Assembly (NCBI GenBank): GCA_023701085.1
Contig: JAMPXR010000006.1
Span: forward strand, 1 to 18,643
DNA length: 18,643 nt
Reading direction: 5' to 3'
From: Ramlibacter sp.
Lineage (GTDB): Bacteria; Pseudomonadota; Gammaproteobacteria; Burkholderiales; Burkholderiaceae_C
Below are positions 6,938 through 18,211 of the stretch, in pieces. Made by a program: the position numbers and the translations under genes. Positions within the stretch are counted from its first letter, which is position 1, and every line of letters begins with the position of its first letter. The notes under the pieces were generated by a model, which was given only the letters and a program-made list of their open reading frames with translations, made no database searches and was not told where the DNA came from.

Positions 6938-6965
6938 AGTTAACATAATATACAGAGACGTCGCG
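6938..6965 (+). repeat. dif-like site, left att of element A
   Basis: The XerD arm is AGTTAACATAA (6938-6948), one base different from the reverse-complemented E. coli arm. The core TATACA (6949-6954) matches exactly. The XerC arm GAGACGTCGCG (6955-6965) is unrecognisable. The left arm is therefore interpreted as chromosomal and the right arm as belonging to element A. The site also encodes the last codons (CILC and stop) of the regulator on the minus strand. Confidence 0.75.
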
Positions 6966-7215: not shown

Positions 7216-7229
7216 TTGCCCGCACTCCT

Positions 7230-7247: not shown

Positions 7248-7255
7248 GAGCGGGA

Positions 7256-7283
7256 AGGATAGCCCATAGGGGTCGGACGTCAA
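7256..7283 (-). promoter_or_regulatory. Leftward promoter of the regulator
   Basis: Read on the minus strand there is a -35 TTGACG (7283-7278), a 16-nt spacer and a -10 TATCCT (7261-7256). The -35 hexamer overlaps a direct repeat GTCAATG (7279-7285 and 7287-7293) and a palindrome CGTCAATGACG (7286-7296), which are further operator candidates. Confidence 0.55.
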
Positions 7284-7314
7284 TGCGTCAATGACGTTGG
7301 ATGATCCAACTGGC

Positions 7315-7343
7315 TTGACCGTCCATTGCAAGTGGACTACATT
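7315..7343 (+). promoter_or_regulatory. Rightward early promoter with palindrome in the spacer
   Basis: TTGACC (7315-7320), a 17-nt spacer and TACATT (7338-7343) form a good sigma-70-type promoter about 110 bp before the first early gene. The spacer itself begins GTCCA and ends TGGAC, an inverted repeat centred between the two hexamers, so a bound repressor would block RNA polymerase. The pairing with the leftward promoter gives a lysogeny-switch layout. Confidence 0.6.
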
Positions 7344-7454
7344 CCCTTTGCCACGGTCCACCCGTACCAAACGGGCCGCCCGCACAGCGAAATCCTGGGC
7401 CGTGGCTCCTTTCGAGGGGTGCGGGCCGGCGCCGACACCTGAGGGATTTCAACC

Positions 7455-7781
7455 GTGCAAACACCCGCAGTCAATCCGGCAGGCTCACCCGCAGCCGCGC
7501 AGAAAAACGACCCCGTTTACAGCTTGCCGTTCAGGGAGAAGTTTTTCGACTTTGTCGAGGGGACTTCGCTTGAGGTGAGCCCGCGCGTCCAGTCCGGCCT
7601 GGCCGCCTACGCGCCGCCATACGGCGCAATCGTCGGTCTGCACATCCGGGCAGGAAGCCTTTCGATGCAACACGACATGAGGGCCGACCAGGCGCGCGCA
7701 CTGGGGCAATTCTTGCTGAGGTGCGCCGACGCCTGCGACTGGCTTGAGCCACACCCGAGCGCGGGGAGGGGCGACGAATGA
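7455..7781 (+). CDS. Early phage protein, 108 aa, unknown function
   Basis: First gene of the rightward early operon. The GTG start at 7455 has a GAGGGA ribosome-binding site 7 nt upstream. Residues 1-20 are Ala/Pro-rich and probably disordered. The remainder is a compact domain with FFDFVEGTSLEVSPRVQSG, YAPPYGAIVGLHI and SLSMQHDMRADQARALG segments. Similar small proteins occur in dif-associated prophages of beta- and gammaproteobacteria, including filamentous ones, but I know of no assigned function. The stop overlaps the next start (ATGA). No membrane segment or catalytic motif is visible. Confidence 0.75.
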   Translation: MQTPAVNPAGSPAAAQKNDPVYSLPFREKFFDFVEGTSLEVSPRVQSGLAAYAPPYGAIVGLHIRAGSLSMQHDMRADQARALGQFLLRCADACDWLEPHPSAGRGDE

Positions 7782-7987
7782 GAACGACCCTGATCCGCCC
7801 GGACGGTCAGCGGCTCGTCATCGAGCCATCCCATACCTTTCGAAGCGTCCGCATTTGGTCCCCTGGCGGGGAACCTGGCGAAATCATCACCGTGCCCCGG
7901 GAGCTGACCGGCGCATTCTGCCAAGCGGTAGAGGGCGCCGCGCAGGCCATAGAGCAGACTGACCGCCTCACGTCTGCGGAGGGCTGA
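7778..7987 (+). CDS. Early phage protein, 69 aa, unknown function
   Basis: The ATG at 7778 overlaps the preceding TGA (ATGA), and GGAGGGG lies about 7 nt upstream, so translation is coupled. The protein is small and mainly beta in its first half (TTLIRPDGQRLVIEPS), then helical (LTGAFCQAVEGAAQAIEQ). No family is recognised. Its position between two other small early genes suggests an accessory role in replication or host takeover, which is inference only. Confidence 0.65.
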   Translation: MRTTLIRPDGQRLVIEPSHTFRSVRIWSPGGEPGEIITVPRELTGAFCQAVEGAAQAIEQTDRLTSAEG

Positions 7988-7990
7988 AAC

Positions 7991-8218
7991 ATGGCCCGCA
8001 TCCTCAAGTCCAGTATCCGCGCCGCGCCGGCGCCGCACCTGACGAAAGGGCCGCCGGGCGTGGCCTACTGGTCCGCTGACCGCTGCGCGCGGTTCAAGCG
8101 CGACCTGCGAACGATCAATGAGTCGCGCGAAAGCGTGGACACCATGATGCTCGCCGCCCGGCGCCTGGCTGACGCCTACGGCCTGCCGTGGGAAGCCGTC
8201 AAGCCGGCCGAAGAGTGA
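7991..8218 (+). CDS. Early phage protein, 75 aa, unknown function
   Basis: Starts at ATG 7991, with GGAGGG upstream and 3 bp after the previous stop. The N-terminal third is basic and Pro/Ala-rich (ARILKSSIRAAPAPHLTKG), followed by a helical region (DRCARFKRDLRTINESRES) and a short conserved-looking C-terminus (RLADAYGLPWEAVKP). It could be a small DNA- or protein-binding factor. The stop overlaps the GTG start of the initiator candidate, indicating coupled expression with it. No recognised family. Confidence 0.65.
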   Translation: MARILKSSIRAAPAPHLTKGPPGVAYWSADRCARFKRDLRTINESRESVDTMMLAARRLADAYGLPWEAVKPAEE

Positions 8219-8622
8219 GTCAGTACGGCCCGGCCGCCGGCGCCAGCGGGGGGCGGGCGCCGCTGCTGTCTGTCGTCCACGTCCCCGAGTTCCTGCGCCT
8301 GGATCACGCCGAGCTGGCCGCGCTGCTGGGCAAGCTGCGCGACCCGCTCTGCACGCATGTGTTCATCCTGGTCCTAGCTCATGGCCTGTTCGAAAACGGG
8401 GAGTTCCTGGGCGGCTATGCCCGCCTGATGGATCTGTGCCGGCCGTCGCACCCGGAGCGCGGCACGCGCCGGCCGGGGCCTTCAATGAAGCAGATTCGCC
8501 GCGCCGTGGCCGACCTGATCGGCATGGGCTTGCTGTCCCGCGACGCGGGCGCGAACAAGGCGCAAGGGCAGCTGAGGCTACGTGCGATGCCACGGCAGAC
8601 AAAGCTGCGTCCGGCGGCTTAG
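8215..8622 (+). CDS. Winged-helix replication-initiator candidate, 135 aa
   Basis: The GTG at 8215 overlaps the TGA of the previous gene (GTGA) and is preferred over an in-frame GTG at 8188. After a Gly/Ala-rich N-terminus, residues about 20-125 read as a winged-helix domain: a first helix (FLRLDHAELAALLGKL), HVFILVLAHGLFENGEF, a segment YARLMDLCRPSHPERG, the recognition helix candidate GPSMKQIRRAVADLIGMGLL, and a basic wing. This pattern resembles initiator-type winged helices of iteron plasmids and small phages. The gene ends immediately before tandem 12-bp repeats and a DnaA box, the classical layout of an iteron replicon. No rolling-circle HUH or two-Tyr motif is present. A transcription-factor role remains possible. 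Confidence 0.55.
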   Translation: MSQYGPAAGASGGRAPLLSVVHVPEFLRLDHAELAALLGKLRDPLCTHVFILVLAHGLFENGEFLGGYARLMDLCRPSHPERGTRRPGPSMKQIRRAVADLIGMGLLSRDAGANKAQGQLRLRAMPRQTKLRPAA

Positions 8623-8689
8623 AGGGCAGGCTTAAGGGCAGGGCTCCACAGAGGGAAAACCGGCTCTTAAGGGCAGGCTTAAGGGCAGG
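8618..8689 (+). repeat. Iteron-like 12-bp direct repeats
   Basis: CTTAAGGGCAGG occurs exactly three times, at 8631-8642, 8666-8677 and 8678-8689. A fourth copy with one inserted base (CTTAGAGGGCAGG) lies at 8618-8630. They form two tandem pairs, each pair being immediately adjacent copies. The position directly after the initiator candidate suggests binding sites for it. Confidence 0.7.
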
Positions 8690-8699
8690 GGTATCAACG

Positions 8700-8837
8700 A
8701 TGGAATTCAATACCTACTACGCGCGCGTTGGCCGCGCGCTGCGCACAGCTTTTTCCACCGACTTATCCACACCAGGCCCCCGCAAGCGGGGGCAGAAGAA
8801 CCCCCGCCGGCCGCTCCTACGGGCGGCCGGGGCCTGA
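8700..8837 (+). CDS. Possible 45-aa ORF overlying the origin
   Basis: The ATG at 8700 follows AGGGG by about 9 nt and opens a 45-codon frame beginning MEFNTYYARVGRALRTAF, then a basic Pro/Arg-rich tail. It runs over the DnaA box and both hairpins, so its second half could be chance. The first 18 residues look protein-like and amphipathic. I rate it as possible only. Confidence 0.25.
   Translation: MEFNTYYARVGRALRTAFSTDLSTPGPRKRGQKNPRRPLLRAAGA
8776..8793. repeat. Perfect 8-bp hairpin beside the DnaA box
   Basis: GCCCCCGC and GCGGGGGC are separated by AA only, giving a very tight stem beginning 4 bp after the DnaA box. No T-run follows, so it does not look like a terminator; a role in the origin or in strand initiation is possible. 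Confidence 0.5.
8807..8830. repeat. Second origin-proximal hairpin
   Basis: CCGGCCGC (8807-8814) pairs with GCGGCCGG (8823-8830) across an 8-nt loop. It stands 13 bp after the first hairpin. No T-run follows. Confidence 0.45.
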
Positions 8838-9084
8838 ACCGCCGCCGCTGACGATGCAGGCCCGCGCGCCGCACCAGGCGCCGCCCGGACATCCGTTTTT
8901 CAGGAAGGGGGGGCGCGAGCTGCCGGGGCGGCTGCGCACCAGGCCGCGCCCGATCAACCAGGATTGCGCCAGAGCCGCGAACGCAAGCGGCCTAAGGGGG
9001 TAGGGGCGGGATGTCGGGAAAACGGCTCCAAGGGCCTAAAATCTCGTCCGTGTGCTGGCGGCCCGGTTTAGAGGGATACCAGCT

Positions 9085-9339
9085 ATGGCTGAAAAAGTGG
9101 GGCGCGGGCCGTGCCCGCATTGCGGCGAACCGGTCACGTTCAAGCGCACAACGGGCGGGAAGCTGTCGTTTTCGTGCGACGCCGACGATTGCGACTCGTC
9201 GGGCTATGCCGAGCCGGATTCGGGCCAGTACCGCCGATGGATGGCAAGTGTCAGGAAACCGGCCGCCGCCGCGCCGCCCGCACCGACCGAAGCGCCCAAG
9301 CCCGCCGGCAAACCCGGCTTCAGCCTGGGGGCCGTGTGA
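9085..9339 (+). CDS. Zinc-ribbon protein, 84 aa
   Basis: First gene of the late operon, starting at ATG 9085 with AGAGGGA upstream; an extension to 9052 adds codons without a ribosome site. Residues C10, C13, C31 and C36 (GPCPHCGE and SCDADDC) form a zinc-ribbon-like four-cysteine set within the first 40 residues. The second half is an Ala/Pro-rich flexible tail. Zinc ribbons of this size in phages often act in transcription or DNA binding, so a late-gene activator is a reasonable guess but unproven. The stop overlaps the next ATG (TGATG). Confidence 0.75.
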   Translation: MAEKVGRGPCPHCGEPVTFKRTTGGKLSFSCDADDCDSSGYAEPDSGQYRRWMASVRKPAAAAPPAPTEAPKPAGKPGFSLGAV

Positions 9340-9908
9340 TGGTCCGCCGCGTGAATGCAGACGCCGCCGACCAGGCCGCCGACCAGGCCGCGCCGTCCGG
9401 GCTGGAATCGCTGGCCGCCGAAGCCGAATCGACGTTGAACCCGCCGCCGCTCGGCGAGGGCGTTACGGACCTGGACGTGGACGCGCAGGCCAACGGGCCG
9501 GCCGTGCCGCCGATGACGAATGCGCAATGCATCCTCATGGCCGTGCAGCTCGTGCGCGGGACGCTCGACACCGTGGCGCACCTGAAAACGCCGGCCGTCA
9601 CGCTGTCCGACGCGAAGATCGAACCGGCCGCCGCCGCGCTCGGCGCCGTGTTCGATAAGCACGGCTGGAACCTGCAACAGTGGGCCGGCGACTACGCCGC
9701 CGAAATCGCCGCCGTGGCCACGGCCGGGCCGGTGGCCTGGGCCGCCTGGCAGGGAATCAAGGGGGAGCTGGCCGAAGCGAAGAAAGCGAAGCCGGCCGCC
9801 GCGCCGGCCGACCCGGACAACCCGGACCAGGCCGTGACCGTGGCCGCCGGCAATGTGGCTGTGTTCCCAAAGGGTGATCCGCGCAATGTCTCGCTCGACC
9901 GGGGCTGA
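9339..9908 (+). CDS. Phage protein upstream of the packaging ATPase, 189 aa
   Basis: The ATG at 9339 lies in a TGATG overlap with the zinc-ribbon gene. The first 60 residues are acidic and Ala/Pro-rich. Residues about 65-115 are helical (ILMAVQLVRGTLDTVAHL), and a moderately hydrophobic segment follows at about 117-138 (YAAEIAAVATAGPVAWAAW). The C-terminus is Lys/Ala/Pro-rich. It could be a membrane-associated or internal virion protein, but no homologous family is recognised. Its end overlaps the start of the ATPase gene by 23 bp, which suggests coupled translation and a related role in assembly. Confidence 0.7.
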   Translation: MVRRVNADAADQAADQAAPSGLESLAAEAESTLNPPPLGEGVTDLDVDAQANGPAVPPMTNAQCILMAVQLVRGTLDTVAHLKTPAVTLSDAKIEPAAAALGAVFDKHGWNLQQWAGDYAAEIAAVATAGPVAWAAWQGIKGELAEAKKAKPAAAPADPDNPDQAVTVAAGNVAVFPKGDPRNVSLDRG

Positions 9909-10572
9909 CAAACCGCTGATGGTTGGATTTTTCGGGGCGCGCGGCACCGGTAAGACGGTCGGCGCGCTGCGCTACCTGCGCGCCGCTCGGCCGGCTCGCC
10001 TAATCGGCTGGGATTACAAACACGACCCGACGCTGTCCGGCCTGGGCCGCGAAGTGACCGCGCTTCCCGCGCTGATCCGCGCCATGCGCGCGGATCGGTT
10101 CGCGCTGCGCTATCTCGTGGACCACGACCGCGACATCGCAGCGCAGTTCGACCTGTTCTGCCGCGCCGCCTGGCTGGCTGGCGATCTAACGATGTTCGTT
10201 GACGAGGTGCCGGAAGTCACGAAGCCGGGCAGGGCGCCGCCGGCCTGGAAAAAGCTCGTCAACGTGGGACGCCAGTACCGGCGCGCGGACGGCCGCGTGG
10301 TCGGAGTTTCGATCCTGGCCGCCGGGCAGCGCGCGGCCGAAGTCGATAAGTCGTTCATGGCTAACCTGGACGTGGTGCGATCCGGGCGCCTGGGCCATGA
10401 GGATGACGCGCGCACGATGGGCAAGCTGCTCGGTGTGCCGTGGGCCGAGCTGCTGGCCCTGCCCGACCTGGCGTGGGTCGAGCGCACGGCCGGCGGGGCT
10501 GTGTCGCGCGGGCGCATCAGCTTTACAAAAAAAAATCCGACCGCACGGCCGGCCCTTAGGAGGGTGGCCTAA
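9886..10572 (+). CDS. Genome-packaging ATPase, A32/P9 (FtsK-HerA) type
   Basis: A 228-aa P-loop ATPase predicted to drive DNA into the preformed membrane-containing capsid. The ATG at 9886 has an AAGGGTGA-like ribosome site and overlaps the previous gene. Walker A is GARGTGKT (residues 17-24); Walker B is LTMFVDEV with D106/E107; a sensor-like SILAAGQR segment lies near residue 143-150. Size and motif spacing fit the PRD1 P9/PM2 P9 group. It lacks the C-terminal membrane span expected of the filamentous-phage pI/Zot ATPases, which are the main alternative. It stands two genes before the capsid candidate, the usual order in double-jelly-roll viruses. Near its 3' end is a run of nine A (10527-10535). 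Confidence 0.8.
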   Translation: MSRSTGADKPLMVGFFGARGTGKTVGALRYLRAARPARLIGWDYKHDPTLSGLGREVTALPALIRAMRADRFALRYLVDHDRDIAAQFDLFCRAAWLAGDLTMFVDEVPEVTKPGRAPPAWKKLVNVGRQYRRADGRVVGVSILAAGQRAAEVDKSFMANLDVVRSGRLGHEDDARTMGKLLGVPWAELLALPDLAWVERTAGGAVSRGRISFTKKNPTARPALRRVA

Positions 10573-10576
10573 GGGC
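10552..10576. terminator. Stem-loop across the ATPase stop codon
   Basis: GCCCTTAGG (10552-10560) and CCTAAGGGC (10568-10576) form a perfect 9-bp stem with a 7-nt loop. It includes the TAA at 10570-10572. No T-run follows, so it may be an RNA-processing or attenuation element, or an operator because CCTAAGGG resembles the iteron and operator core. Classification as terminator is tentative. Confidence 0.35.
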
Positions 10577-10656
10577 GCGAATTTGCGCACCGCGCCGCCC
10601 GCGTGGCAGCCTCGGGGCTGTCAATTTCGACATGCAATTCCGAGGACACCAGACCT

Positions 10657-10812
10657 ATGGATTCCGCCGCTCTCACCAAGGCCGCCATCGGCCTGGGCAT
10701 CGCTCTCGCCGTGTACAAGTTCGTCGGCAATGCCGCCGTCAAGGCCGCCGCGCTCGGCGTGGCCGGCATCATCGTCGCCAAGCAAATCCCGTTCGTTCAG
10801 GACGCCATCTGA
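10657..10812 (+). CDS. Small membrane protein of the virion, 51 aa
   Basis: The ATG at 10657 has GAGGA about 11 nt upstream; a longer frame from 10603 lacks a signal. The protein is hydrophobic over residues about 6-45 (AAIGLGIALAVYKFVG and AALGVAGIIVAKQIPF), so one long or two short membrane segments are expected. It lies between the packaging ATPase and the capsid gene, where double-jelly-roll phages with an internal membrane often encode small membrane proteins. An internal-membrane structural role is inferred from this position. The 76 bp to the capsid gene contain a direct repeat of GGGCCGCTGAC. Confidence 0.7.
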   Translation: MDSAALTKAAIGLGIALAVYKFVGNAAVKAAALGVAGIIVAKQIPFVQDAI

Positions 10813-10888
10813 GCTGACCGACCCGGCGGGCCGCTGACCGTGGGCCGCTGACAAGTTCGCACCCTTCGACACTTCGAAAGCACCCACC

Positions 10889-11758
10889 ATGAATCAGCTC
10901 AAGCCCTGTCAAGCCTTCCAAAACGTCGCCGCCAGTTCCACGGCCATCGTTGACCTGTTGCCCACGGCAGGCGGTAACACACTGGAAGCAATCTGGCTCA
11001 CGCTCGGGGGCGGGAACACCATCGCCAACATCACGGCATGGAGACTCAAGGCCAACGGCAAAACTATCCGCGAATCGACCGGCCCGCACACCGACACGAT
11101 CAATCAGTTCTACGGCTACAACAGTGCCGCGACGCAGCTGCTGATCGACTTCATGTTTCAGCCTGGCCGCACGCCCAACGCGCACCAGGCCGGCGCGCTG
11201 GAACTGTCCGCAAATTCGGGCATCAAGCAGCTGACGCTGGAAGTGGACCTGGGCGCGGGCGTGGGTCCGACCATGAGCGCACACGTGGCGCTGTCGCCGG
11301 CCGGCCCGCGACCTGGCGAAGAACGAATCCGCTTCATCATGTTGAAGCAGACGAAGGCAACCATCAACGTGCCGGCGGCTGGCGAGTTCGCCATTGCCAT
11401 TCCGCACTCGAAGCCGGAAGCCGGCGGCTCGGTGTTCATGGGCGTCCACATGTTCGCCGCGAATATCACTTCGCTGCGCGTGCGCCGGCAGGGAATTGAC
11501 GAATGGACCGGGAGTGTCACGCTGTTGGACGAAATCCAGACTTACGCCAAGCGTGTCCCGCAGGCCAATCACGTCGCTTTCGATCCCGTGGTGGACAACA
11601 TCGTCGCCGGCCGCGTGTGGGACACAACCAGTCGCTCGCCGGCTGACCCGGTGCGGCCTGGCGCTGGCGTGACGTCCGCCGAGTTCCTCGTTACCGTGTC
11701 GGGCGCCGAAACATTCGACGTCGAAACGCTCGAACTGATCTACCTCAACGACTATTGA
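10889..11758 (+). CDS. Major capsid protein, double-jelly-roll candidate, 289 aa
   Basis: The protein is almost entirely beta-like with no membrane segment, and its length is near that of PM2 P2 (269 aa). Features typical of double-jelly-roll phage capsid proteins can be seen: an early strand pair (LEAIWLTLGGG), the segment ITAWRLKANGKTIRE followed by TINQFYGY, a strand of the form KQLTLEVDLG near residue 115, and a second sheet domain from about residue 165 (ATINVPAAGEFAIAIP). The packaging ATPase and a small membrane protein precede it and single-span membrane proteins follow, as expected for a tailless virus with an internal membrane. The call rests on pattern and context and not on an alignment; a structure prediction would settle it. 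Confidence 0.75.
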   Translation: MNQLKPCQAFQNVAASSTAIVDLLPTAGGNTLEAIWLTLGGGNTIANITAWRLKANGKTIRESTGPHTDTINQFYGYNSAATQLLIDFMFQPGRTPNAHQAGALELSANSGIKQLTLEVDLGAGVGPTMSAHVALSPAGPRPGEERIRFIMLKQTKATINVPAAGEFAIAIPHSKPEAGGSVFMGVHMFAANITSLRVRRQGIDEWTGSVTLLDEIQTYAKRVPQANHVAFDPVVDNIVAGRVWDTTSRSPADPVRPGAGVTSAEFLVTVSGAETFDVETLELIYLNDY

Positions 11759-11775
11759 TCTGAGGGCCGCGCGCC

Positions 11776-12060
11776 ATGACGCAGGATGAATTTGCAGCGA
11801 ACGACGCGCAGGACGCCGCGCGCTTCTATTCGCTGTTCCTGGCCGCTGCGCATTCGGCGCTCGGCGTTGATCTTGGCGCGCCGGCCTACGATGGCCCGAT
11901 AACCAATCCGGTAGGCCAAAACCAAGTGCTCAACATCAGCACGGGCACGGCGGTACAGGGGCAGGCCGCCACCGTGCGGACAACCGTTCTCGGGCAAACC
12001 TTTTCGCTTCCGCTGGTGCTGGTGCTTGGCGCTGGCGCGTGGTGGCTGTTGAGGAGATGA
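11776..12060 (+). CDS. Virion membrane protein with C-terminal span, 94 aa
   Basis: Starts at ATG 11776 soon after the capsid stop. Residues 1-35 are helical (EFAANDAQDAARFYSLFLAAA), the middle is polar and beta-like (ITNPVGQNQVLNISTGTAV), and residues about 76-91 form a single membrane span ending WWLLRR. The tail-anchored shape suits a minor capsid protein that links the shell to the inner membrane. The next gene begins one base after its stop. No family is recognised. Confidence 0.7.
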   Translation: MTQDEFAANDAQDAARFYSLFLAAAHSALGVDLGAPAYDGPITNPVGQNQVLNISTGTAVQGQAATVRTTVLGQTFSLPLVLVLGAGAWWLLRR

Positions 12061-12061
12061 C

Positions 12062-12619
12062 ATGAGCGAATCAGTACCCGCACTTGGCGCCGGCACCGTG
12101 CCGGAAGGGCAACAGGTGGAGATCGCTGGCCCTGCGATCAACGGCGCGCCGCTGCACGCCATCGATCAAGACTACTGGGCGGCCGAGCTGGCGCGGCAAG
12201 CGGAGGAAGATCGGAAGCGCAACGAGCTGACTCTGGCACGCCAAAAGCCATACGACGATGCAGCGGCAGCGCAAAACGCGAAATACATCGCCGAGGGAAA
12301 CGAGTATTGGATCAACGCCGAGAACGTCAGCAACGGCGCGCCGTCTGTCAACGTGTTTGCGACCGGCGCCAGCTTCGGCGGTCAGGCCATGCCGTACACG
12401 GCGCCAGCCATTGCTGACAACTTTGTGGCCGGCACCAACATCCCAGGCACGCCGACCGCGCCGTCCACAATTGCACCCGCAACGGTTGCGCCATCGGCGC
12501 CGGCCGCCGGCCCGGCGACCACCGGGCAAACCAAACCGGCCGCGCTGCCGCCTGACGTCATGCCGCTGGTGCTGGCCGCTGTCGCTGCCGGCCTGACAGT
12601 GCTGGTCCTCAAAAAATGA
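12062..12619 (+). CDS. Virion membrane protein with C-terminal span, 185 aa
   Basis: The ATG at 12062 follows the previous TGA by one base. Residues about 35-75 form a charged helix (YWAAELARQAEEDRKRNE), possibly coiled coil. A Gly/Asn-rich globular part follows, then a Thr/Pro/Ala-rich linker from about 130 to 160. Residues about 165-182 are a membrane span (PLVLAAVAAGLTVLVL) ending in KK. The arrangement (outer domain, flexible linker, tail anchor) matches the neighbouring genes. Probably a minor capsid or membrane-vertex protein; its stop overlaps the next start (ATGA). Confidence 0.7.
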   Translation: MSESVPALGAGTVPEGQQVEIAGPAINGAPLHAIDQDYWAAELARQAEEDRKRNELTLARQKPYDDAAAAQNAKYIAEGNEYWINAENVSNGAPSVNVFATGASFGGQAMPYTAPAIADNFVAGTNIPGTPTAPSTIAPATVAPSAPAAGPATTGQTKPAALPPDVMPLVLAAVAAGLTVLVLKK

Positions 12620-13317
12620 GCTGGCTCGACGTCCTGCGCGCCCGGCCCGACCTGTCCACCAGTGGGGCGCCAAACGTCGCGGACTACCGCGACCCGGAAT
12701 CCGGCCGCGTGTTCCGCATCGCGTTCTCGGAAACCTTCATCGGCGGGGCCGAAGGCGGGGAGCGCATCGTAACGCGCATTGGGTATATCAGCCATGACGG
12801 CAAGCCTTGGTATCCGGGCCAGCGCGCCAGCATTCACGGCCTGGACGGCGCCGTGACCGGATCATTCGAGATCGAAGACCCTAACGCCGTTGATTGGGGG
12901 CTTCGCGCCGCGATGCTTGTGGTTGGAGCAATCGCGCTAGGCGCCGCCGCATGGTCGTTCGGGCTTCTGCCTGGCGCACCGGCCGGCGCCGCGCCGACTG
13001 CAAGCCTGGGCACCACCGCCGCGACCACCGCCGCGACCACCGCCGGCACCACCGCCGCCGCGACCACCGCCGCCGCGACCACCACCGCCGGCACCACCGC
13101 CGCGACCATCGCCACCGGCGCTAAGGTGATCGGCGCCGCGCTGCCGCTGCTTGGAGCTGTCGGCGGTAGTGGAGGGGCCGGAACATCAGCCGGCGGGGCG
13201 CCGCCGCTACAGTCCGGGCCGCCCGGCGCCGCGCTGCCGCGTCAGACCGTGCCCGGCGGGATGGACAACATTTTGCTGATCGCTGCCGGCCTGGCCGCGT
13301 TCGTGGCATTCGGGTAA
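12616..13317 (+). CDS. Membrane protein with Thr/Ala low-complexity region, 233 aa
   Basis: Starts in an ATGA overlap. Residues 1-92 form a soluble beta-containing domain (VFRIAFSETFIGG, GYISHDGKPWYPGQ). A membrane span lies at about 94-117 (AAMLVVGAIALGAAAW). Residues about 130-167 consist almost entirely of Thr and Ala encoded by near-repeats of ACC GCC GCG. A second hydrophobic stretch follows near 170-185, then a Gly/Pro-rich part, and residues 216-233 form a C-terminal span. A structural role in the virion membrane is likely by context. The repeat is a probable site of length variation. No family is recognised. Confidence 0.65.
   Translation: MSWLDVLRARPDLSTSGAPNVADYRDPESGRVFRIAFSETFIGGAEGGERIVTRIGYISHDGKPWYPGQRASIHGLDGAVTGSFEIEDPNAVDWGLRAAMLVVGAIALGAAAWSFGLLPGAPAGAAPTASLGTTAATTAATTAGTTAAATTAAATTTAGTTAATIATGAKVIGAALPLLGAVGGSGGAGTSAGGAPPLQSGPPGAALPRQTVPGGMDNILLIAAGLAAFVAFG
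13010..13111. repeat. ACC/GCC-rich low-complexity repeat
   Basis: About 100 bp of imperfect repeats built from ACCGCCGCG and ACCGCCGGC units inside the preceding gene. All units keep the frame and encode Thr-Ala-Ala or Thr-Ala-Gly steps. Confidence 0.7.
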
Positions 13318-13326
13318 AGGGGCGCC

Positions 13327-13947
13327 ATGAGCGACATGCAGCGGTATCCGTTTAATCTTGCCGCCAATGGCTCGCAAATTCTGCAAGTCATGGGCACAAG
13401 TTTTATCGTGCTATCTGCGACAGGCGCGCTAAGTGCGCGCATGGATCAGGGCGGGGCGCTGGTGAACATCACGGCCGGCATGGGGAAAAAGGGCCGCGAG
13501 TTTACCGGCCTGACGCTGACCGACCTGAGCGGGGCGCCGAACTCTGGCTTCATCCTCGTTTCGGATGACGAGTTTTTGAATCAGACTTTCTCGGGGAGTG
13601 TGTCCGTCACGGCATTGCCCAATGTCACGATTGGGGCAATGCCGAGCGTGGTCGTGTCCTCGATGCCCGTTCCAATGACCGGCGCTATGGCTTCTGCCGC
13701 TGCGACCGTGACGAACGCGAGCGGGCAGCTCAAGGCGGCGAACGCAGCGCGCAAGTATCTGCTGATCCAGAACAATGACGCGTCGGGAACCATCTACGTG
13801 CAGCCGTCCGCGGCGGCAGCTACGGCAGCCAACGGAATCAAGATCGGGCCGGGCGGGTATTGGGAACCGGTAATCATCCCGACCAGTGAAATCCGCGCCA
13901 TCGGCAGCATCGCCAGCAACGCCAACATCGTGGTCGTGGAGGGCTGA
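13327..13947 (+). CDS. Beta-rich spike or minor capsid protein, 206 aa
   Basis: No membrane segment is seen. Residues 1-85 form a beta domain (QILQVMGTSFIVLSATG, FTGLTLTDLSG). A connecting segment of short beta repeats follows (SVSVTALPNVTIGAMPSVVV at about 90-109). From about residue 135 there is a second domain with AARKYLLIQNND, GTIYVQPSA and IKIGPGGYWEPVIIP, a pattern common in phage tip, decoration and receptor-binding proteins. The domain order (base, thin stalk, head) suggests a vertex spike for host attachment. It is followed closely by another small beta protein. Function is inferred from shape. Confidence 0.65.
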   Translation: MSDMQRYPFNLAANGSQILQVMGTSFIVLSATGALSARMDQGGALVNITAGMGKKGREFTGLTLTDLSGAPNSGFILVSDDEFLNQTFSGSVSVTALPNVTIGAMPSVVVSSMPVPMTGAMASAAATVTNASGQLKAANAARKYLLIQNNDASGTIYVQPSAAAATAANGIKIGPGGYWEPVIIPTSEIRAIGSIASNANIVVVEG

Positions 13948-13951
13948 CGCC

Positions 13952-14296
13952 GTGCCCGCTCAATCCTCATCGCAGTCCGGAAGTTTTCCTGGGCTCACGC
14001 TCAAGGCCTGGGCGCTGGTCGCAAACGTGGCAGGCAACGTCGCGCAAACGCTCGTCAAGAGTTCGAACGTGACTAGCATTACTCGAATAGGCGCGGGCAA
14101 CTTCACCGTGGTTTTAACGACGAATCTGTCAACCGCCAGCTATGTGGTCGTCGGGGAAGTCGGTGGCACGGGCGGGACGTTGTTGGCGCTGACGCAGCAA
14201 TCAAAGGCAGTAGGGGGGGGCAGCGTTCGGTGCGATTCCCCCGCGGGCGTCCTGACCGACCCGCCTTCCGGCTGGTATCTGGCCTACTACGAATGA
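13952..14296 (+). CDS. Small beta-rich protein, possible spike tip, 114 aa
   Basis: The GTG at 13952 has GGAGGG about 8 nt upstream and follows the previous stop by 4 bp; the longer upstream frame overlaps the preceding gene and is rejected. The protein is beta-rich (ALVANVAGNVAQTLVKSS, GNFTVVLTTNLSTASYVVVG) with no membrane segment. It lies next to the spike candidate and before the lysis genes. Such small all-beta domains occur as trimeric tips of phage fibres, so a role with the previous protein in receptor binding is plausible. The stop overlaps the next start (ATGATG). Confidence 0.6.
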   Translation: MPAQSSSQSGSFPGLTLKAWALVANVAGNVAQTLVKSSNVTSITRIGAGNFTVVLTTNLSTASYVVVGEVGGTGGTLLALTQQSKAVGGGSVRCDSPAGVLTDPPSGWYLAYYE

Positions 14297-14454
14297 TGCG
14301 CCGCGCTGCCGCCGTTTTTTTCCAGCAGCAAGCCCGCTATTGGGCCAAGCTCACGCCGCAACAAAAGCTCGACTTCCAACGCCGCGCCGCGCTGGTGCTG
14401 CCAGAGCAGACGGCCGAATATGCGCAGATCACCGCGACGTTGCCCGCGAAATGA
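14293..14454 (+). CDS. Small helical protein, 53 aa
   Basis: ATG 14293 overlaps the previous TGA (ATGA); ATG 14296 is an equally good start. The protein is basic and helical (VFFQQQARYWAKLTPQQKLD, then FQRRAALVLPEQ) with no membrane span. Its stop overlaps the start of the transglycosylase (ATGA), so it is coupled to genes on both sides. No family is recognised; a small internal virion protein is possible. Confidence 0.55.
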   Translation: MMRRAAAVFFQQQARYWAKLTPQQKLDFQRRAALVLPEQTAEYAQITATLPAK

Positions 14455-15140
14455 AATGGCTGACCGCTGCCGCCGCTGCCGTGCTTGCCGCCTACTGGCT
14501 GACCAGGCCGGCGCAGGCCGGCGGGCTGTTCTTGCTGCCCGATGGATGGGCGGGCGAAGCGGCGCCGCCGGACGAAGCGCCGCCGGACGAGGTGCCGCAG
14601 TTGCCTACCGTACTTGAAACCATCGCCGTGACAATGGACCCGACCACCTACGAAACCGGCACGCTGCCGGGCGACCTGGCCGCCGCGAATGAGCGCGCGT
14701 TTCTCGACATGCTCGCGTATGCCGAAGGCACCGCGGGACGCGGCGACGATGGCTACAACGTGGTGTTCGGCGGCGGGCTGTTCGCCAGCTACGCCGATCA
14801 CCCGCGCCGATATTTCACCTTCACGCGCACCGATGGCACCACCGGCCGCACCAGCGCCGCCGGCCGCTATCAGTTCATCGCGCCGACCTGGGATGACCTG
14901 GCGCCGCGCATGGGCCTGGGCGACTTCGGTCCGTCGAATCAGGACGCCGCCGCGCTCGAGCTGGTGCGTCAGCGCGGCGCGCTCGAGGATGTGCGCGCCG
15001 GCCGCTTCGCTGATGCCGTGCGCAAAGTGTCGCGCACCTGGGCCAGCCTGCCGGGGAACGATTACATGCAGTTCGGCGGGCGATCGCTCGCGCAAGTGGC
15101 CGCCGCTTTCGAATCGGCCGGCGGCACGATCACCGCGTAA
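14451..15140 (+). CDS. Membrane-anchored lambda-type lytic transglycosylase (GH104-like), 229 aa
   Basis: Residues 1-20 are hydrophobic (KWLTAAAAAVLAAYWLT), then come an acidic Pro-rich linker (about 30-60) and a catalytic domain from about residue 83 to the end. The domain closely follows lambda R endolysin: AFLDMLAYAEGT with the catalytic Glu92, GYNVVFGGGLF, DHPRR, AAGRYQF, and SLPGNDYMQFGG near the end. It should cleave peptidoglycan glycan strands with formation of 1,6-anhydro ends. An N-terminal anchor and linker instead of a free endolysin suggest a virion-membrane enzyme for genome entry, like PRD1 P7, although secretion for lysis is also possible. Coupled by ATGA to the previous gene. 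Confidence 0.85.
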   Translation: MKWLTAAAAAVLAAYWLTRPAQAGGLFLLPDGWAGEAAPPDEAPPDEVPQLPTVLETIAVTMDPTTYETGTLPGDLAAANERAFLDMLAYAEGTAGRGDDGYNVVFGGGLFASYADHPRRYFTFTRTDGTTGRTSAAGRYQFIAPTWDDLAPRMGLGDFGPSNQDAAALELVRQRGALEDVRAGRFADAVRKVSRTWASLPGNDYMQFGGRSLAQVAAAFESAGGTITA

Positions 15141-15148
15141 GGACCACC

Positions 15149-15565
15149 ATGAGCACGCTCAACCTTTCCCCGAAAAACCCGCTGATGGTTGCCGCGCTGG
15201 CGCTTGGCGCCGTCTGGTTCCTGTCGCGCCGGCAGGCCGTGGCGTCGCCCAATGTGCGGCAGCCGACTGTCGGCGCCGCCTCCATAACTCCGTCGCTGGT
15301 CGATTCCGCGCTACGCGCCGTCACATCGCTGTTCGGCGGCGGCACGCGCAGCACGCAGAGCCAAGAGGAAATGGCCGCGCGTGACGCCGCGCAGGCCGCC
15401 GTGCGCGCGGGCGATCCGTACTATGGGGGCGCCGAGGGCATCGCCGGCACCGTGCCCAGCGAAAGCTGGTATGAGCAAGTGCAGGCCGACGCCGCCGCCT
15501 ACGGCGCCGCCTCCGAGGGTTGGATTGATTACGGCACGGGCGACCCGTACCACGGCGGCTATTGA
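15149..15565 (+). CDS. Membrane protein with N-terminal span, 138 aa
   Basis: The ATG at 15149 is 8 bp after the transglycosylase stop, with AAGGA upstream. Residues about 10-27 form a membrane span (PLMVAALALGAVWFLSRR). The remainder is soluble, with a helical stretch near 70-85 (SQEEMAARDAAQAAVR) and two similar motifs, DPYYGG and DPYHGG, the second at the C-terminus. The aromatic Gly motifs could bind glycan or protein. Likely a virion membrane component by context; no family recognised. Confidence 0.65.
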   Translation: MSTLNLSPKNPLMVAALALGAVWFLSRRQAVASPNVRQPTVGAASITPSLVDSALRAVTSLFGGGTRSTQSQEEMAARDAAQAAVRAGDPYYGGAEGIAGTVPSESWYEQVQADAAAYGAASEGWIDYGTGDPYHGGY

Positions 15566-15568
15566 CGC

Positions 15569-15904
15569 ATGAAAGTTCCGGCCGTCCCGCTGCTGGTCCT
15601 GGGCGCGCTCGGCGTGCTGGCCGTGCTGTGGCTGGCATCGCGCGCAAGCGCCGGCACCGTGGGCCAGAGCATCGGGCGCAACGTGATCGAAGGCGCGGAC
15701 GGCGCCGTCGCGGGCGCCGTGGTGGCCCTGGGTGACATCGTGGGCATTCCCGAAACCGACGCCGATCAATGCACGCTCGACCTGGCGCGCGGGGATCTGT
15801 GGGCCGCCTCGTTTTCGTGCCCGGCGCCGCGTTTCGTCAAGGCCGTGGCATCGGGCGACTATGGCGCGCGCACCACCGGCAGCGGCGCTGAGGGTGGCTG
15901 GTAA
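15569..15904 (+). CDS. Membrane protein with N-terminal span, 111 aa
   Basis: Residues about 4-24 are a membrane span or uncleaved signal (VPLLVLGALGVLAVLWLA). The rest is soluble with a Gly/Ala-rich helix (IEGADGAVAGAVVALGDIVG) and two Cys (DQCTLD and FSCPAP). It starts 3 bp after the previous stop, and its stop shares a base with the start of the phospholipase-like gene (TAATG). Close coupling to that gene suggests they act together. No family recognised. Confidence 0.6.
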   Translation: MKVPAVPLLVLGALGVLAVLWLASRASAGTVGQSIGRNVIEGADGAVAGAVVALGDIVGIPETDADQCTLDLARGDLWAASFSCPAPRFVKAVASGDYGARTTGSGAEGGW

Positions 15905-16164
15905 TGGCGCGCGACTGGTGCTCCGCTGTCCCGGATTTTCATTTCGGGGAAACCTGTTGCAAGCGGCACGATAAGGACTACGCCGAGGGCAAGAAAACCC
16001 GCCGCGCCGCCGACAGGGACATGCTGGTTTGCATCGCGCAGGCAGACGCGCCGGCCCGCGCCGTGCTCTATTGGCTTGGCGTGCGCGCCTTCGGCTGGTT
16101 GCACTGGAAACGCAAGGCCCGCGCCCGACGCCGCGCCGCCGTCGCCAGCGAGGTCGCATCGTGA
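15904..16164 (+). CDS. Phospholipase A2-like protein, 86 aa
   Basis: The motif CCKRHDKDY (residues 18-26) followed by a RRAADRDML segment (33-41) matches the catalytic helix of secreted phospholipases A2, in which His22 and Asp23 would be the His-Asp pair and Asp37 the supporting Asp. Further Cys residues (C6, C43) could form disulfides. The canonical glycine-rich calcium loop is not obvious, so activity is uncertain. The C-terminal third is hydrophobic then strongly basic (YWLGVRAFGWLHW, KRKARARRR). In a phage with an internal membrane, such a domain could act in membrane fusion, entry or lysis; parvoviruses use one in their capsid for endosomal escape. The GTG of the next gene overlaps its stop. 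Confidence 0.6.
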   Translation: MARDWCSAVPDFHFGETCCKRHDKDYAEGKKTRRAADRDMLVCIAQADAPARAVLYWLGVRAFGWLHWKRKARARRRAAVASEVAS

Positions 16165-16328
16165 TAGAGCTGCTGCCCTGGCTGAACCTGCTGTTGCTGC
16201 CGACACTGGGCTACGTCATCCGCATGGAACACCGGCTCACGCGCCTGGAAGCCTTGCGCGAGGCCGACCGCGACGCGCGCGCGGATGGCAGCCATGTTCA
16301 CCGCAGGCGCACCGACCCTCAACCCTGA
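16161..16328 (+). CDS. Small membrane protein with charged tail, 55 aa
   Basis: The GTG at 16161 overlaps the previous TGA (GTGA). Residues 1-20 form a membrane span (IELLPWLNLLLLPTLGYVI) followed by a highly charged helix (RMEHRLTRLEALREADRDAR). This is the shape of an inner-membrane spanin or pinholin partner, but the length is short for an i-spanin. Because a small lipoprotein follows two genes later, a lysis role is possible. No family is recognised. Confidence 0.6.
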   Translation: MIELLPWLNLLLLPTLGYVIRMEHRLTRLEALREADRDARADGSHVHRRRTDPQP

Positions 16329-16338
16329 AAGGACCATC

Positions 16339-16437
16339 ATGGCCGCCAAACGCAAAGCCAAGAAAAAGCCCGCCCGCCGACTGCCGCCGCGCCACAAGTC
16401 CGGGCCGAAAAAAGGCCAGTTCAAGAAGCGCAGTTGA
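16339..16437 (+). CDS. Highly basic 32-aa protein
   Basis: The ATG at 16339 has a GAAAGGA ribosome site 7 nt upstream and encodes 32 residues, about half Lys/Arg (for example AAKRKAKKKPARR), ending GQFKKRS. No membrane segment is present. Its stop overlaps the next gene's ATG (TGATG), which supports translation. A DNA-binding or DNA-condensing virion component is the most natural idea for a protamine-like peptide in the structural operon, but no homologue is claimed. Confidence 0.65.
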   Translation: MAAKRKAKKKPARRLPPRHKSGPKKGQFKKRS

Positions 16438-16643
16438 TGCGCGCCGCGCTGCTGGCCGCCGTCGCGCTGCTGGCCGGCTGTGCCGGGCTCACGCCTGGCG
16501 CGCCGCCGCTGGAAAACCGCGTTGTATGCACCGTCGCGCGCGACCGGGCTTACACCGTATCCCTGTGGGGCCCGGCCGGCCTGACTGCGCAGATCGCCGC
16601 CGCAGACGCCGCCGTGATCTGCGCGCGCCCGCCGCCGCCATAG
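16437..16643 (+). CDS. Small lipoprotein, possible o-spanin, 68 aa
   Basis: The ATG at 16437 lies in a TGATG overlap. The N-terminus MRAALLAAVALLAGC ends in a lipobox (LLAGC), so Cys15 should be lipidated. The mature part is about 54 residues with two further Cys (VVCTVA and VICARP) and a Pro-rich end. As the last gene of the late operon it could be an outer-membrane spanin for lysis or an exclusion lipoprotein; the Pro content weakly favours spanin. The strong hairpin and terminator downstream mark the operon end. Confidence 0.65.
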   Translation: MRAALLAAVALLAGCAGLTPGAPPLENRVVCTVARDRAYTVSLWGPAGLTAQIAAADAAVICARPPPP

Positions 16644-16651
16644 GCCGCACC

Positions 16652-16679
16652 CGCGCGGCGCTGATCGGGGCGCCGCGCG
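16652..16679. repeat. Strong GC hairpin after the late operon
   Basis: A 10-bp stem, CGCGCGGCGC (16652-16661) with GCGCCGCGCG (16670-16679), has an 8-nt loop. No direct T-run follows (GCCCGCTCTTTC), so it may protect the mRNA 3' end or assist the terminator 34 bp downstream. Confidence 0.5.
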
Positions 16680-16712
16680 CCCGCTCTTTCAAAATTCGCA
16701 GTTGAGCATTCA

Positions 16713-16748
16713 ACCCCGGCGGGGTACTCCAGTCCGCCGGGGTCTTTT
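16713..16748 (+). terminator. Rho-independent terminator of the late operon
   Basis: ACCCCGGCGG (16713-16722) pairs perfectly with CCGCCGGGGT (16734-16743) across an 11-nt loop and is followed by CTTTTC. It lies between the late operon and the converging gene at 16748-16987, whose transcript it could also stop. Confidence 0.85.
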
Positions 16749-16987
16749 CAATGCCATCGAAAGCGCAGCCACCAATGGGCCGGCGCGGCAGCGCGCGGGG
16801 CCGTCAACGCATCGAAGTGGCCCGCCAGCTTGGCGCGCGTGATCTTGTCCACCACGTGCCACGCCCGCGCGTAGTGCTCGGCGCGCGGTCCGTCAGGGTC
16901 GATGCGCGGCACGGCCGCCAACCACGCGCGCACGTCCGAAATGGTGACGATGACCTGGCCGAAAAGGTCCGTTCGATATGGCTCCAT
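16748..16987 (-). CDS. Leftward phage protein, 79 aa, at the right end of element A
   Basis: The protein starts MEPYRTDLFGQVIVTISDV, then has a helical region (VRAWLAAVPRIDPDG, AEHYARAWHVVDKIT, AKLAGHFDALT) and an aromatic C-terminus. No membrane or catalytic motif is visible. Small proteins with this opening (YRTDLFG) occur in dif-associated prophages, with unknown function. In the integrated state it stands alone at the right end. In the circular form it lies 48 bp downstream of the end of the extended regulator on the same strand, so it probably belongs to the regulator operon. Integration would separate it from that promoter. Confidence 0.7.
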   Translation of the reverse strand: MEPYRTDLFGQVIVTISDVRAWLAAVPRIDPDGPRAEHYARAWHVVDKITRAKLAGHFDALTAPRAAAPAHWWLRFRWH

Positions 16988-17102
16988 GAGTCCCGCCTGG
17001 ATGAACTTGTGCGGGGGAGTGTGCCGGGTAATCGGTCAGCAAAAAGCGAGGGATGTGCCGGTGGCGCGGGCGGCGGAGGCCAGCAATTCGAGTGCCTCGG
17101 GG

Positions 17103-17130
17103 ACTTTACATAATATACATCGTATCAATC
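17103..17130 (+). repeat. dif-like site between elements A and B
   Basis: XerD arm ACTTTACATAA (17103-17113) matches 9 of 11 bases of the left chromosomal arm; core TATACA (17114-17119); XerC arm TCGTATCAATC (17120-17130) matches 8 of 11 bases of the right chromosomal arm, including the first six. It is the only one of the three sites with two recognisable arms and so the best candidate for a working dif in this chromosome. Confidence 0.75.
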
Positions 17131-17762
17131 AGAATCACGGGCAAAGGCGCCCTCGCAACGGCCAGCAAGAGCGCGCGCTCATTGGGGCGCGCTTCAAGGT
17201 GCTGTGCGCGGATGCGGGCCTGTCCATCGATCAAACTGCGAAAGCCTTGCACGTGACGCCCCGCACGGTGCGGTACTGGATTTCCGGGCGCGTGGCCGTG
17301 CCCTATGCGGCCTACCGGCTGGTGCGCATCCTGGGGGGCTATGAGCTGCCCGATCCGGCCTGGGCGGGCTGGGTGTTCCACTCGGGCAAGCTGTGGTCCC
17401 CTGAGGGTCATGGCTTCGTGCCCAGCGATTCGAACTGGTGGGGGCGCCTGGTCAGCCAGGCGCGGCTGTGGCGGGAGCAGTACGAGCGAGGTAGGCAGTT
17501 CGACCTACTGATGCTGCGGGCCGGTCGGTCTGCGCCGGGGCCGAGCGGAGCCGCTTGCGGCCCGCCGGCTGCGGCGCAGTCCGCACCGAACGGCGAAGCC
17601 GGGCGGGCGGCGCAGCCGCCCGGCCTAGATTTATCCCTAGGAAACTTTGGTACATCAGGACCGGGAAACGGGCCGTCTACAGAGGGAAACCGGGGCAGCG
17701 CTGGCGCAGCGCAGCGGGTGGCCGAGATTCCATCTTGTGAAAACGGGGAGGACCGGCCATGA
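17115..17762 (+). CDS. XafT-like Xer recombination activation factor (start lost to att site)
   Basis: The body holds a helix-turn-helix (FKVLCADAGLSIDQTAKALH, then VTPRTVRYWISGR) and a DUF3653-like part (PDPAWAGWVFHSGKLWSPEG, then FVPSDSNWWGRL and a helical RLWREQYERG). A Gly/Pro/Ala-rich tail makes up the last third. This domain pair is that of VC1465 (XafT) of the satellite phage TLC-phi, which activates XerCD-dif recombination without FtsK. In the integrated state no convincing start exists: the frame runs back through the att site into element A, where only GTG 17055 or 17061 or a distant ATG 16902 are available. Circular closure supplies ATG 18157 and an N-terminus MKEFQMKSTTCKHIHRINQ, for 228 aa in total. 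The stop overlaps the orf133 start (ATGA). Confidence 0.7.
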   Translation: MHRINQNHGQRRPRNGQQERALIGARFKVLCADAGLSIDQTAKALHVTPRTVRYWISGRVAVPYAAYRLVRILGGYELPDPAWAGWVFHSGKLWSPEGHGFVPSDSNWWGRLVSQARLWREQYERGRQFDLLMLRAGRSAPGPSGAACGPPAAAQSAPNGEAGRAAQPPGLDLSLGNFGTSGPGNGPSTEGNRGSAGAAQRVAEIPSCENGEDRP

Positions 17763-18160
17763 GTGCGGCCATGTTGCGGGCGCTCGATGCGGTTAATGAC
17801 CGGCTGATCCTGGCCGAGGCGATCGGGCAAGCCCTGGACCAAGTGGCGGGCGAAGAGGATCAACCTTTGGTACTCGTGTACCGCAGGCAGGTGCAAGCCA
17901 TTGGCGAGGCCTGTGAAGCCCTGGAGGAGCTGGTCAGGGGGTGCGGCGCGAACGAGCCACCTTCCCCCGCGCCACGTGCCCAGCGCACGGCTGAAAGCGG
18001 CCCTAGCGCGCCTGAGTTGGCCCAGGGCGGTGCCCTGCCCGATCCGCTGGCGTTCACGGCTTGCGCGCCCTGTGGACAGTCTGCCGCGGGGCTGGGTGCC
18101 CGATCCGATGCGCAGTGCCCTGCGCGCCCTGCCAAACGGTCTTTCTCGGCCCACGAATGA
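17759..18160 (+). CDS. Small helical protein of element B, 133 aa
   Basis: Starts in an ATGA overlap with the xafT-like gene. Residues about 5-62 form two amphipathic helices (LRALDAVNDRLILAEAIGQA, and YRRQVQAIGEACEALEELV), recalling small phage and plasmid proteins of unknown function. The rest is Pro/Ala/Gly-rich with several Cys and appears disordered. Its TGA at 18158-18160 overlaps an ATG at 18157 that leads into the third att site. A partner or regulator role for XafT is inferred only from coupling; a replication role cannot be supported from sequence. Confidence 0.65.
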   Translation: MSAAMLRALDAVNDRLILAEAIGQALDQVAGEEDQPLVLVYRRQVQAIGEACEALEELVRGCGANEPPSPAPRAQRTAESGPSAPELAQGGALPDPLAFTACAPCGQSAAGLGARSDAQCPARPAKRSFSAHE

Positions 18161-18200
18161 AAGAATTTCAAATGAAATCAACGACTTGCAAACATATACA
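18157..18200 (+). pseudogene. Detached 5' end of the xafT-like gene
   Basis: The ATG at 18157 overlaps the orf133 stop (ATGA) and reads MKEFQMKSTTCKHIHR through the third att core. At the equivalent core position the xafT body continues in the same frame (HIHRINQ). After integration this start instead reads into chromosomal DNA (HIHRIKYIIP). An AAAG at 18160-18163 could serve the alternative ATG at 18172. Confidence 0.7.
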
Positions 18201-18211
18201 TCGTATAAAAT
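18184..18211 (+). repeat. dif-like site, right boundary of element B
   Basis: XerD arm ACTTGCAAACA (18184-18194) is poor; core TATACA (18195-18200) is intact; XerC arm TCGTATAAAAT (18201-18211) is interpreted as chromosomal. The 12 bp TATACATCGTAT are identical with the middle site. Bases 18212-18289, between this site and the ankyrin gene, hold no visible gene. Confidence 0.7.

What the first reader, a model, noticed from the sequence alone, without database searches (positions are those of the whole stretch)
17114..18200. Circularising a 1,081-bp element restores a split xafT-like gene
In the integrated state the xafT-like gene lacks a credible start and its frame runs through a dif-like core. 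The third att site, 1,081 bp away, is preceded by an ATG in the matching frame (18157). Joining the cores gives a continuous 228-codon gene beginning MKEFQMKSTTCKHIHRINQ. Moreover, xafT and orf133 overlap by ATGA at 17759-17762, and orf133 and the restored xafT overlap by ATGA at 18157-18160. A two-gene, almost fully coding circle with reciprocal start/stop overlaps is unlikely by chance. It means integration would disconnect the recombination activator from its own start, and excision would restore it: a natural switch.
Basis: partly seen in the sequence, partly recalled or inferred. Interest (0 to 1): 0.9.

Follow-up and report, generated by a model that had tools for sequence, protein, structure and literature searches.

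The report
Gene split by its own integration
A tiny (about 1 kb) piece of mobile DNA at the bacterial chromosome's dif site carries a recombination-helper gene whose beginning and body lie at opposite ends of the inserted piece, so that the gene is whole only when the piece is circular or tandemly repeated; the same layout recurs in dozens of relatives.

Summary
Confirmed and generalised. Two dif-type att sites bound a 1,081-bp module whose xafT-like gene (NCBIfam VC1465 family, 90 bits, cut-off 70) runs start-less from att2, while an in-frame start lies just before att3. I collected 56 XafT bodies; 36 had both module ends. An open ATG within 25 codons of the far core lies in the body's own frame in 30 of 36, in the wrong frames in 9 of 72 (one per cluster: 20 of 25 versus 7 of 50). 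The frame differs between lineages and the start follows it. In 33 of 37 copies with a dif-type arm an in-frame stop lies within 4 codons upstream. Joined forms exist: a split body in L076 equals protein P0095 at 185 of 185 residues, and P0095's extra N-terminus is coded at the module's other end. Most relatives' start is 8 codons before the core (18172), not 18157; both remain possible. A GAA-N5-TTC palindrome near the core (33 of 36) may be XafT's site. That integration silences the gene is inferred: 27 of 37 such copies have a start-like codon soon after the core.

The parts
17103..17130 (+). att2 (module left end): XerD-type arm ACTTTACATAA (from element A), core TATACA 17114-17119, XerC-type arm TCGTATCAATC
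17115..17762 (+). xafT-like gene, body without its start (VC1465 family, HTH + DUF3653)
   Evidence: (NF040522 90 bits, cut-off 70; PF12375 37.4 bits, cut-off 22.4)
17759..18160 (+). orf133, small partner gene; overlaps the xafT stop by ATGA; its first 60 residues or so recur in 9 of 36 modules, the window included
18159..18169 (+). GAA-N5-TTC palindrome, 36 bp before the core; candidate XafT binding site
   Evidence: 33 of 36 module right ends, 6 of 36 left flanks, 282 of 18,000 random 60-mers
18172..18195 (+). probable start of xafT (ATG + 7 codons, MKSTTCKH), contiguous with the body in the circle; alternative ATG at 18157
   Evidence: P0002 begins MKSTTCKHIHRIKQN
18184..18211 (+). att3 (module right end): degenerate XerD arm ACTTGCAAACA, core 18195-18200, chromosomal XerC arm TCGTATAAAAT
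6938..6965 (+). att1: chromosomal XerD arm AGTTAACATAA, core 6949-6954, element A end
17061..17117 (+). GTG-started extension used by a gene caller in the integrated state (P0001); probably spurious
17036..17113 (-). detached 3' tail (CKVPEALELLASAARATGTSLAFC) of element A's regulator gene, whose body is 6940-7215 minus strand

Best explanation
The 1,081-bp stretch is an integrated Xer module: a two-gene mobile unit (xafT plus a small partner gene) inserted at dif by the host's XerC/XerD. Its attachment site lies inside the 5' end of its own recombination-activator gene, about 8 codons after the start. As a circle, or between tandem copies, the activator gene is complete; a single integrated copy has the start at the right end and the body at the left end, where the dif arm usually supplies an in-frame stop. 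Shown by sequence: the split, the frame match, its recurrence, natural joined copies. Inferred: that XafT promotes the Xer reaction on an attP with a degenerate XerD arm (by membership of the VC1465 family), that it binds the GAA-N5-TTC palindrome beside that arm, and that integration lowers or ends XafT production, making single insertions stable while tandem copies or a newly arrived circle can mobilise them.
For: Family membership. Same layout in 36 modules of 875-2,728 bp, median about 1.4 kb: same-frame ATG in 30 of 36 (32 of 36 with GTG, one search list), wrong frames 9 of 72; by body frame 8 of 8 (YTS), 21 of 27 (IHR), 1 of 1 (IVS); one per 70%-identity cluster 20 of 25 versus 7 of 50, p = 3e-8. 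Copies with a dif-type arm: in-frame stop within 4 codons in 33 of 37, any upstream start in 3 of 37; copies preceded by another module: in-frame start in 8 of 9. Natural joined product: P0095 = first L076 body, 185 of 185 identical, plus MRKLNPA, which L076 codes before that module's right core; P0002 begins with the same 8 residues as the window's piece before att3. Junctions between tandem modules read through with an ATG in L039, L044, L061, L065, L076. The dif-type pattern occurs exactly once in each of 7 of 14 genomes, each time at the module's left end. Of 4 IHR-frame modules with an ATG inside the XerC arm, where the split would be harmless, 3 have lost the upstream start but kept the palindrome.
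Against: No reads, expression or excision data. In 27 of 37 copies with a dif-type arm a start-like codon follows the core within 24 codons (counted), so a shortened XafT may be made after integration; in the window GTG 17061 could start a fusion. 4 of 36 modules have no ATG/GTG in frame (L037, L061 second, L076 second, L064). One module with an ATG in the XerC arm (L032 first) and joined proteins P0022, P0103, P0114 keep an upstream start all the same. The second bodies in L032 and L052 use another frame than the first module's start; L052's gets an ATG 13 codons up, L032's none, so tandem neighbours do not always restore the gene, and where they do it is a hybrid of two modules, some very different. 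20 of 56 bodies could not be tested: 10 without a recognised left core, 10 without a right core. The partner gene's function is unknown and no replication gene was recognised.
Confidence: 0.8

Rival explanations
1. The split matters little: integrated copies are translated from a downstream or accidental upstream start (codons 9-29 after the core, or GTG 17061 in the window), giving a nearly full activator all the time.
For: Gene callers start many homologues at such codons (one search list); 27 of 37 copies with a dif-type arm have a start-like codon within 24 codons (counted); P0001.
Against: The position of such codons varies, 10 of 37 have none within 24 codons, and L054 first, L061 first and L067 none within 45; in the window the first one (codon 28) lies inside predicted helix 1 (residues 16-32); R19 in the N-terminal tail is nearly invariant in the 23-row alignment; 33 of 37 have a stop right upstream.
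Confidence: 0.3
2. The ATG before att3 is a by-product of a conserved DNA site (palindrome and XerD-arm spacing) and not a selected start.
For: The palindrome's letters (TGAAAGAATTTC) contribute to the ATGA at 18157, and the palindrome is kept where the start is lost.
Against: The shared start at 7-8 codons lies outside the palindrome, its frame changes with the body's frame, and database proteins are called from there.
Confidence: 0.07
3. The 1,081-bp stretch is a decayed remnant of a larger TLC-like satellite or phage rather than a complete mobile unit.
For: No replication or packaging gene recognised; two genes only.
Against: 36 modules of 0.9-2.7 kb share ends, xafT at the left end and mostly the palindrome, and some stand in arrays.
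Confidence: 0.15

Closest known systems
TLC satellite phage of Vibrio cholerae and its Xer activation factor XafT (VC1465)
   Same: VC1465 family protein; attP with dif-like core and XerC arm but degenerate XerD arm (PMC4246890, passages); XafT lets TLC escape FtsK dependence (PMC9765430, passage); VC_1465 lies next to an att site (PMC6458141, passage)
   Different: TLC has an autonomous replication module (PMC4246890, passage) and is much larger (size recalled); whether its xafT is split by attP could not be checked: the 2014 and 2019 PNAS papers are not held and I found no TLC record
Archaeal suicidal (SSV-type) integrases
   Same: attP inside the element's own recombination gene, which is split on integration; [quoted passage not shown]
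   Different: Here bacterial; the split gene is an activator of host recombinases, not a recombinase, and it is cut close to its start
Integration-dependent immunity of mycobacteriophage BPs
   Same: attP inside a regulatory gene so that integration changes the product (PMC4557955, abstract); like element A's regulator here
   Different: There the C-terminus is lost and the short form is the active one
dif (pdif) modules of Acinetobacter
   Same: Small gene units flanked by Xer sites (starts of abstracts)
   Different: Sites here are direct repeats with one degenerate arm and the module encodes an activator; that pdif modules have inverted site pairs is recalled

Membership tests
VC1465 / XafT family (NF040522) | curated HMM cut-off (70 bits) | tested here: met
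   90 bits, residues 32-127
VC1465 / XafT family (NF040522) | activates XerD recombination independently of FtsK | not testable with these tools
   needs biochemistry
TLC-type satellite | attP: dif-like core and XerC arm, degenerate XerD arm | tested here: met
   ACTTGCAAACA before TATACA at att3; the right-end arms of relatives are equally unlike dif
TLC-type satellite | own replication module | tested here: not met
   the 1,081 bp hold xafT and orf133; no replication family matched
TLC-type satellite | packaged by a filamentous helper phage | not testable with these tools
   -
Suicidal integrase element | attP within the element's recombination gene, split on integration | tested here: met
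Suicidal integrase element | the split gene encodes a tyrosine recombinase | tested here: not met
   HTH + DUF3653; best fold matches are XRE-type HTH proteins, none at E <= 0.001
Element using Xer at dif (IMEX) | sits at the chromosome's single dif | tested here: inconclusive
   relatives: dif-type pattern once in each of 7 of 14 genomes, at the module; the other 7, the window's own included, have no exact match

The most novel reading that the evidence does not exclude
A new class of replication-free, self-silencing Xer cassettes: about 1-kb circles that carry little more than their own Xer activator, insert at dif by the host recombinases, switch themselves off by cutting the activator from its start, and are re-armed by tandem insertion or by a newly arrived circle. 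The bacterial counterpart of suicidal integrases, with GAA-N5-TTC as the activator's site beside a deliberately poor XerD arm.
Probability: 0.4. Interest if true: 0.87.

Novelty: new variant of a known kind. Interest (0 to 1): 0.77.

Why it matters
How elements that borrow Xer avoid excising again, and how the activator is controlled, would become testable: here the attachment site itself would be the control. Self-disrupting recombinases have been described as exclusively archaeal (PMC8371274, passage); this is a recurrent bacterial case with an activator instead of a recombinase. It offers very small natural substrates for studying FtsK-independent Xer activation, explains why XafT homologues are often called with odd starts (theirs lies at the other end of the element), and the modules are missing from the one virus collection searched by the alignment.

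Tried and rejected
Looking for relatives by the single protein in viral contigs and genome contigs found none; the alignment A1 gave 30 loci in genome contigs and none in viral contigs. Plasmids: none. Phages: 3 records with weak hits; two of the Vibrio/Stenotrophomonas phage regulators score below the family cut-off (45.7 and 40.9 versus 70) and that line was not pursued; the 80 loci were not analysed. I found no TLC record. Wider sampling: 17 of 399 genomes of the family over the cut-off, 8 of 399 in the order and 2 of 369 in the class by alignment at E <= 1e-15, 2 of 398 in the phylum over the cut-off; each count includes the window's own genome and the sets share genomes. The structure model is middling (pLDDT 67.6, pTM 0.41).

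L055 plus L059 as one array of identical copies: rejected, 37 mismatches in 502 bases. GTG 17061 as a real start: considered unlikely, because the opposite strand codes a conserved regulator tail. I first dismissed the second ATGA overlap as incidental; the check showed that it recurs, so I withdrew that and leave 18157 and 18172 both open, 18172 favoured. I also first wrote that in-frame stops appear in all modules with an ATG in the XerC arm and no upstream start; they do in L037 and L061 second, not in L076 second.

Full report
What is in the window. The window is the whole of one 18,643-bp contig of a draft genome. Three dif-type sites share the core TATACA: att1 with core at 6949, att2 at 17114, att3 at 18195. 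The outer arms, left of att1 and right of att3, are dif-like (AGTTAACATAA and TCGTATAAAAT). Between att1 and att2 lies a 10.2-kb element A (terminase-like ATPase and endolysin by PHROGs). Between att2 and att3 lies the 1,081-bp module of the finding, with two genes: the xafT-like body and orf133.

The gene. The body (17115-17762) matches the NCBIfam VC1465 Xer recombination activation factor family with 90 bits (cut-off 70) and DUF3653 with 37.4 bits (cut-off 22.4). The predicted structure has its first helix at residues 16-32 of the translated piece. Its frame runs leftwards through the core into element A. The same frame immediately before the att3 core reads MKEFQMKSTTCKH.

Is it more than chance? 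I gathered XafT bodies from 17 regions of the same family (16 genomes over the family cut-off and G351 just under it), 30 named loci from genome contigs, 6 from other families of the order and the window. 56 bodies remained; 46 had a recognisable left core and 36 also a right core within 3 kb. The start of each module's gene was looked for before its own right core. An open ATG within 25 codons was found in the body's frame in 30 of 36, in the other two frames in 9 of 72. The body's frame is not always the same: 27 modules read IHR through the core, 8 read YTS and 1 reads IVS; the right-end ATG follows (21 of 27, 8 of 8, 1 of 1). Taking one module per 70%-identity cluster gives 20 of 25 versus 7 of 50 (Fisher p = 3e-8). 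With GTG it is 32 of 36 (one search list). The match across different frames is the strongest argument, since a merely conserved DNA end would not produce it.

The integrated state. Of 46 left cores, 37 carry a dif-type arm (ending ACATAA; in the window this arm comes from element A). In 33 of these an in-frame stop lies within 4 codons upstream, since TTAACATAA holds a TAA in both main frames; only 3 (L032, L038 and the window) have any start codon in the open frame upstream. Of the 9 left cores with a module-type arm, that is second copies in arrays, 8 have an in-frame start; L032's second has none, and L052's second only an ATG 13 codons up, in another frame than the first module's own start. 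In the window a gene caller took GTG 17061 (P0001), a stretch antisense to a real coding tail (see 'noticed'). A reservation: 27 of 37 copies with a dif-type arm have some start-like codon within 24 codons after the core (my count from the list), so silence is not proven.

Natural joined forms. Among the 120 listed homologues (of 234), 19 read across the core from non-dif residues and 2 from dif-type residues; the other 99 start later or lack the motif. P0002 begins MKSTTCKHIHRIKQN, the same first 8 residues as the window's detached start. For L076 the match is exact: the body of its first module (dif-type arm, stop upstream) equals residues 8-192 of P0095 in 185 of 185 positions, and P0095's first seven residues, MRKLNPA, are what L076 codes before that module's right core. 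P0095's contigs are at most 1,473 bp, so whether they are circles, arrays or something else is not known. Junctions between tandem modules read through with an ATG in L039, L044, L061, L065 and L076 and with a GTG in L054 and L055; there the start of one module meets the body of the next, and the two modules range from about 90% alike in part (L065) to nearly unrelated (L076).

A natural experiment, with an exception. Four of the 27 IHR-frame modules have an ATG inside the XerC arm (TCGTATGAAGT), so their gene could start after the core. In three (L037, the second of L061, the second of L076) the upstream start is gone, with in-frame stops in the first two, and the palindrome remains. The fourth (L032 first) keeps its upstream ATG, and so do joined proteins P0022, P0103 and P0114. 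L064 also lacks a start codon there and may be defective.

A candidate XafT site. GAA-N5-TTC occurs in the 60 bases before the right core in 33 of 36 modules, 32-37 bases from the core in all but one of these (45 in L035), against 6 of 36 before the left core and 282 of 18,000 random 60-mers from the same loci. L040, L044 first and L050 lack it. It is kept in four modules that lost the start and lies far from the start in L035, so it is unlikely to be only a ribosome-binding site. An HTH protein that must act beside a poor XerD arm is the obvious candidate ligand; this is inference.

Which start? All 21 IHR-frame modules with an ATG have one 7 or 8 codons before the core (18172 in the window); 5 of 21 have another at 13 (18157). 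The letters of the palindrome help to make the latter.

The partner gene. orf133 has no Pfam or NCBIfam match above a cut-off and one database relative besides itself, but its N-terminal part recurs in 9 of 36 modules, the window included, at E <= 1e-10 (8 of these 9 were seeds of the profile, picked by the BLAST). ATGA at the xafT stop is found in 19 of 36 modules. The smallest modules (875-907 bp) have room for little more than xafT.

How it likely works. Circle: whole xafT is made; XafT helps XerD use the degenerate arm and recombine with dif. TLC's attP has the same anatomy (PMC4246890, passages), and XafT is described as TLC's XerD-activating factor that avoids FtsK dependence (PMC9765430, passage). 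Integrated: start and body part, output falls, the insertion is stable. A tandem neighbour or a newly arrived circle can supply XafT again. Shown: split, frame match, recurrence, joined copies, position at the only exact dif-type match in 7 of 14 genomes. Inferred: activation, binding, silencing.

Novelty. The logic equals that of archaeal suicidal integrases, which a review calls exclusively archaeal (PMC8371274, passages), but with an activator and in bacteria. Searches for XafT, TLC with Xer and dif, Xer activation factor, attP with Xer and start codon, suicidal integrase, DUF3653 or Xer, elements exploiting Xer, VC1465, and integration-dependent repressors listed no title or abstract start describing a split xafT or such modules; I saw listings and passages of some papers only, and the original XafT papers are not held. 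VC_1465 lies next to an att site in V. cholerae (PMC6458141, passage), so TLC may share the arrangement and it may already be known.

Noticed in passing
6940-7215 and 17036-17113, minus strand: Element A's own HTH regulator gene also crosses its attachment site. The prophage form ends in the dif arm (91 aa...RRLCILC); element A's other end codes a further tail. Of 120 listed homologues, 36 end there, 72 run on (most near 114 aa) and 12 lack the motif; P0127 ends CILCKVPQALELLASAARATGTSLALC, two letters from the window's detached tail. It looks like integration-dependent change of a repressor, as in mycobacteriophage BPs.
   Followed up: partly
6955-17102: Element A is a 10-kb dif-integrated prophage with a terminase-like ATPase and an endolysin; several other proteins tested gave no family. 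Its attP has a good XerD arm and no XerC arm, the reverse of the small module.
   Followed up: no
L055 1-963: The contig starts with the same 62 bases that precede its right core 900 bp later, as expected of a tandem or circular 900-bp module.
   Followed up: partly
L032 5867-8595 and L072 932-2910: These larger modules share a second gene of about 290 aa (42% identity over 292 residues), function unknown.
   Followed up: no
L079-L084, L046, L066, L069: XafT-family genes without a recognised TATACATCGT core; their attachment sites, if any, differ.
   Followed up: no
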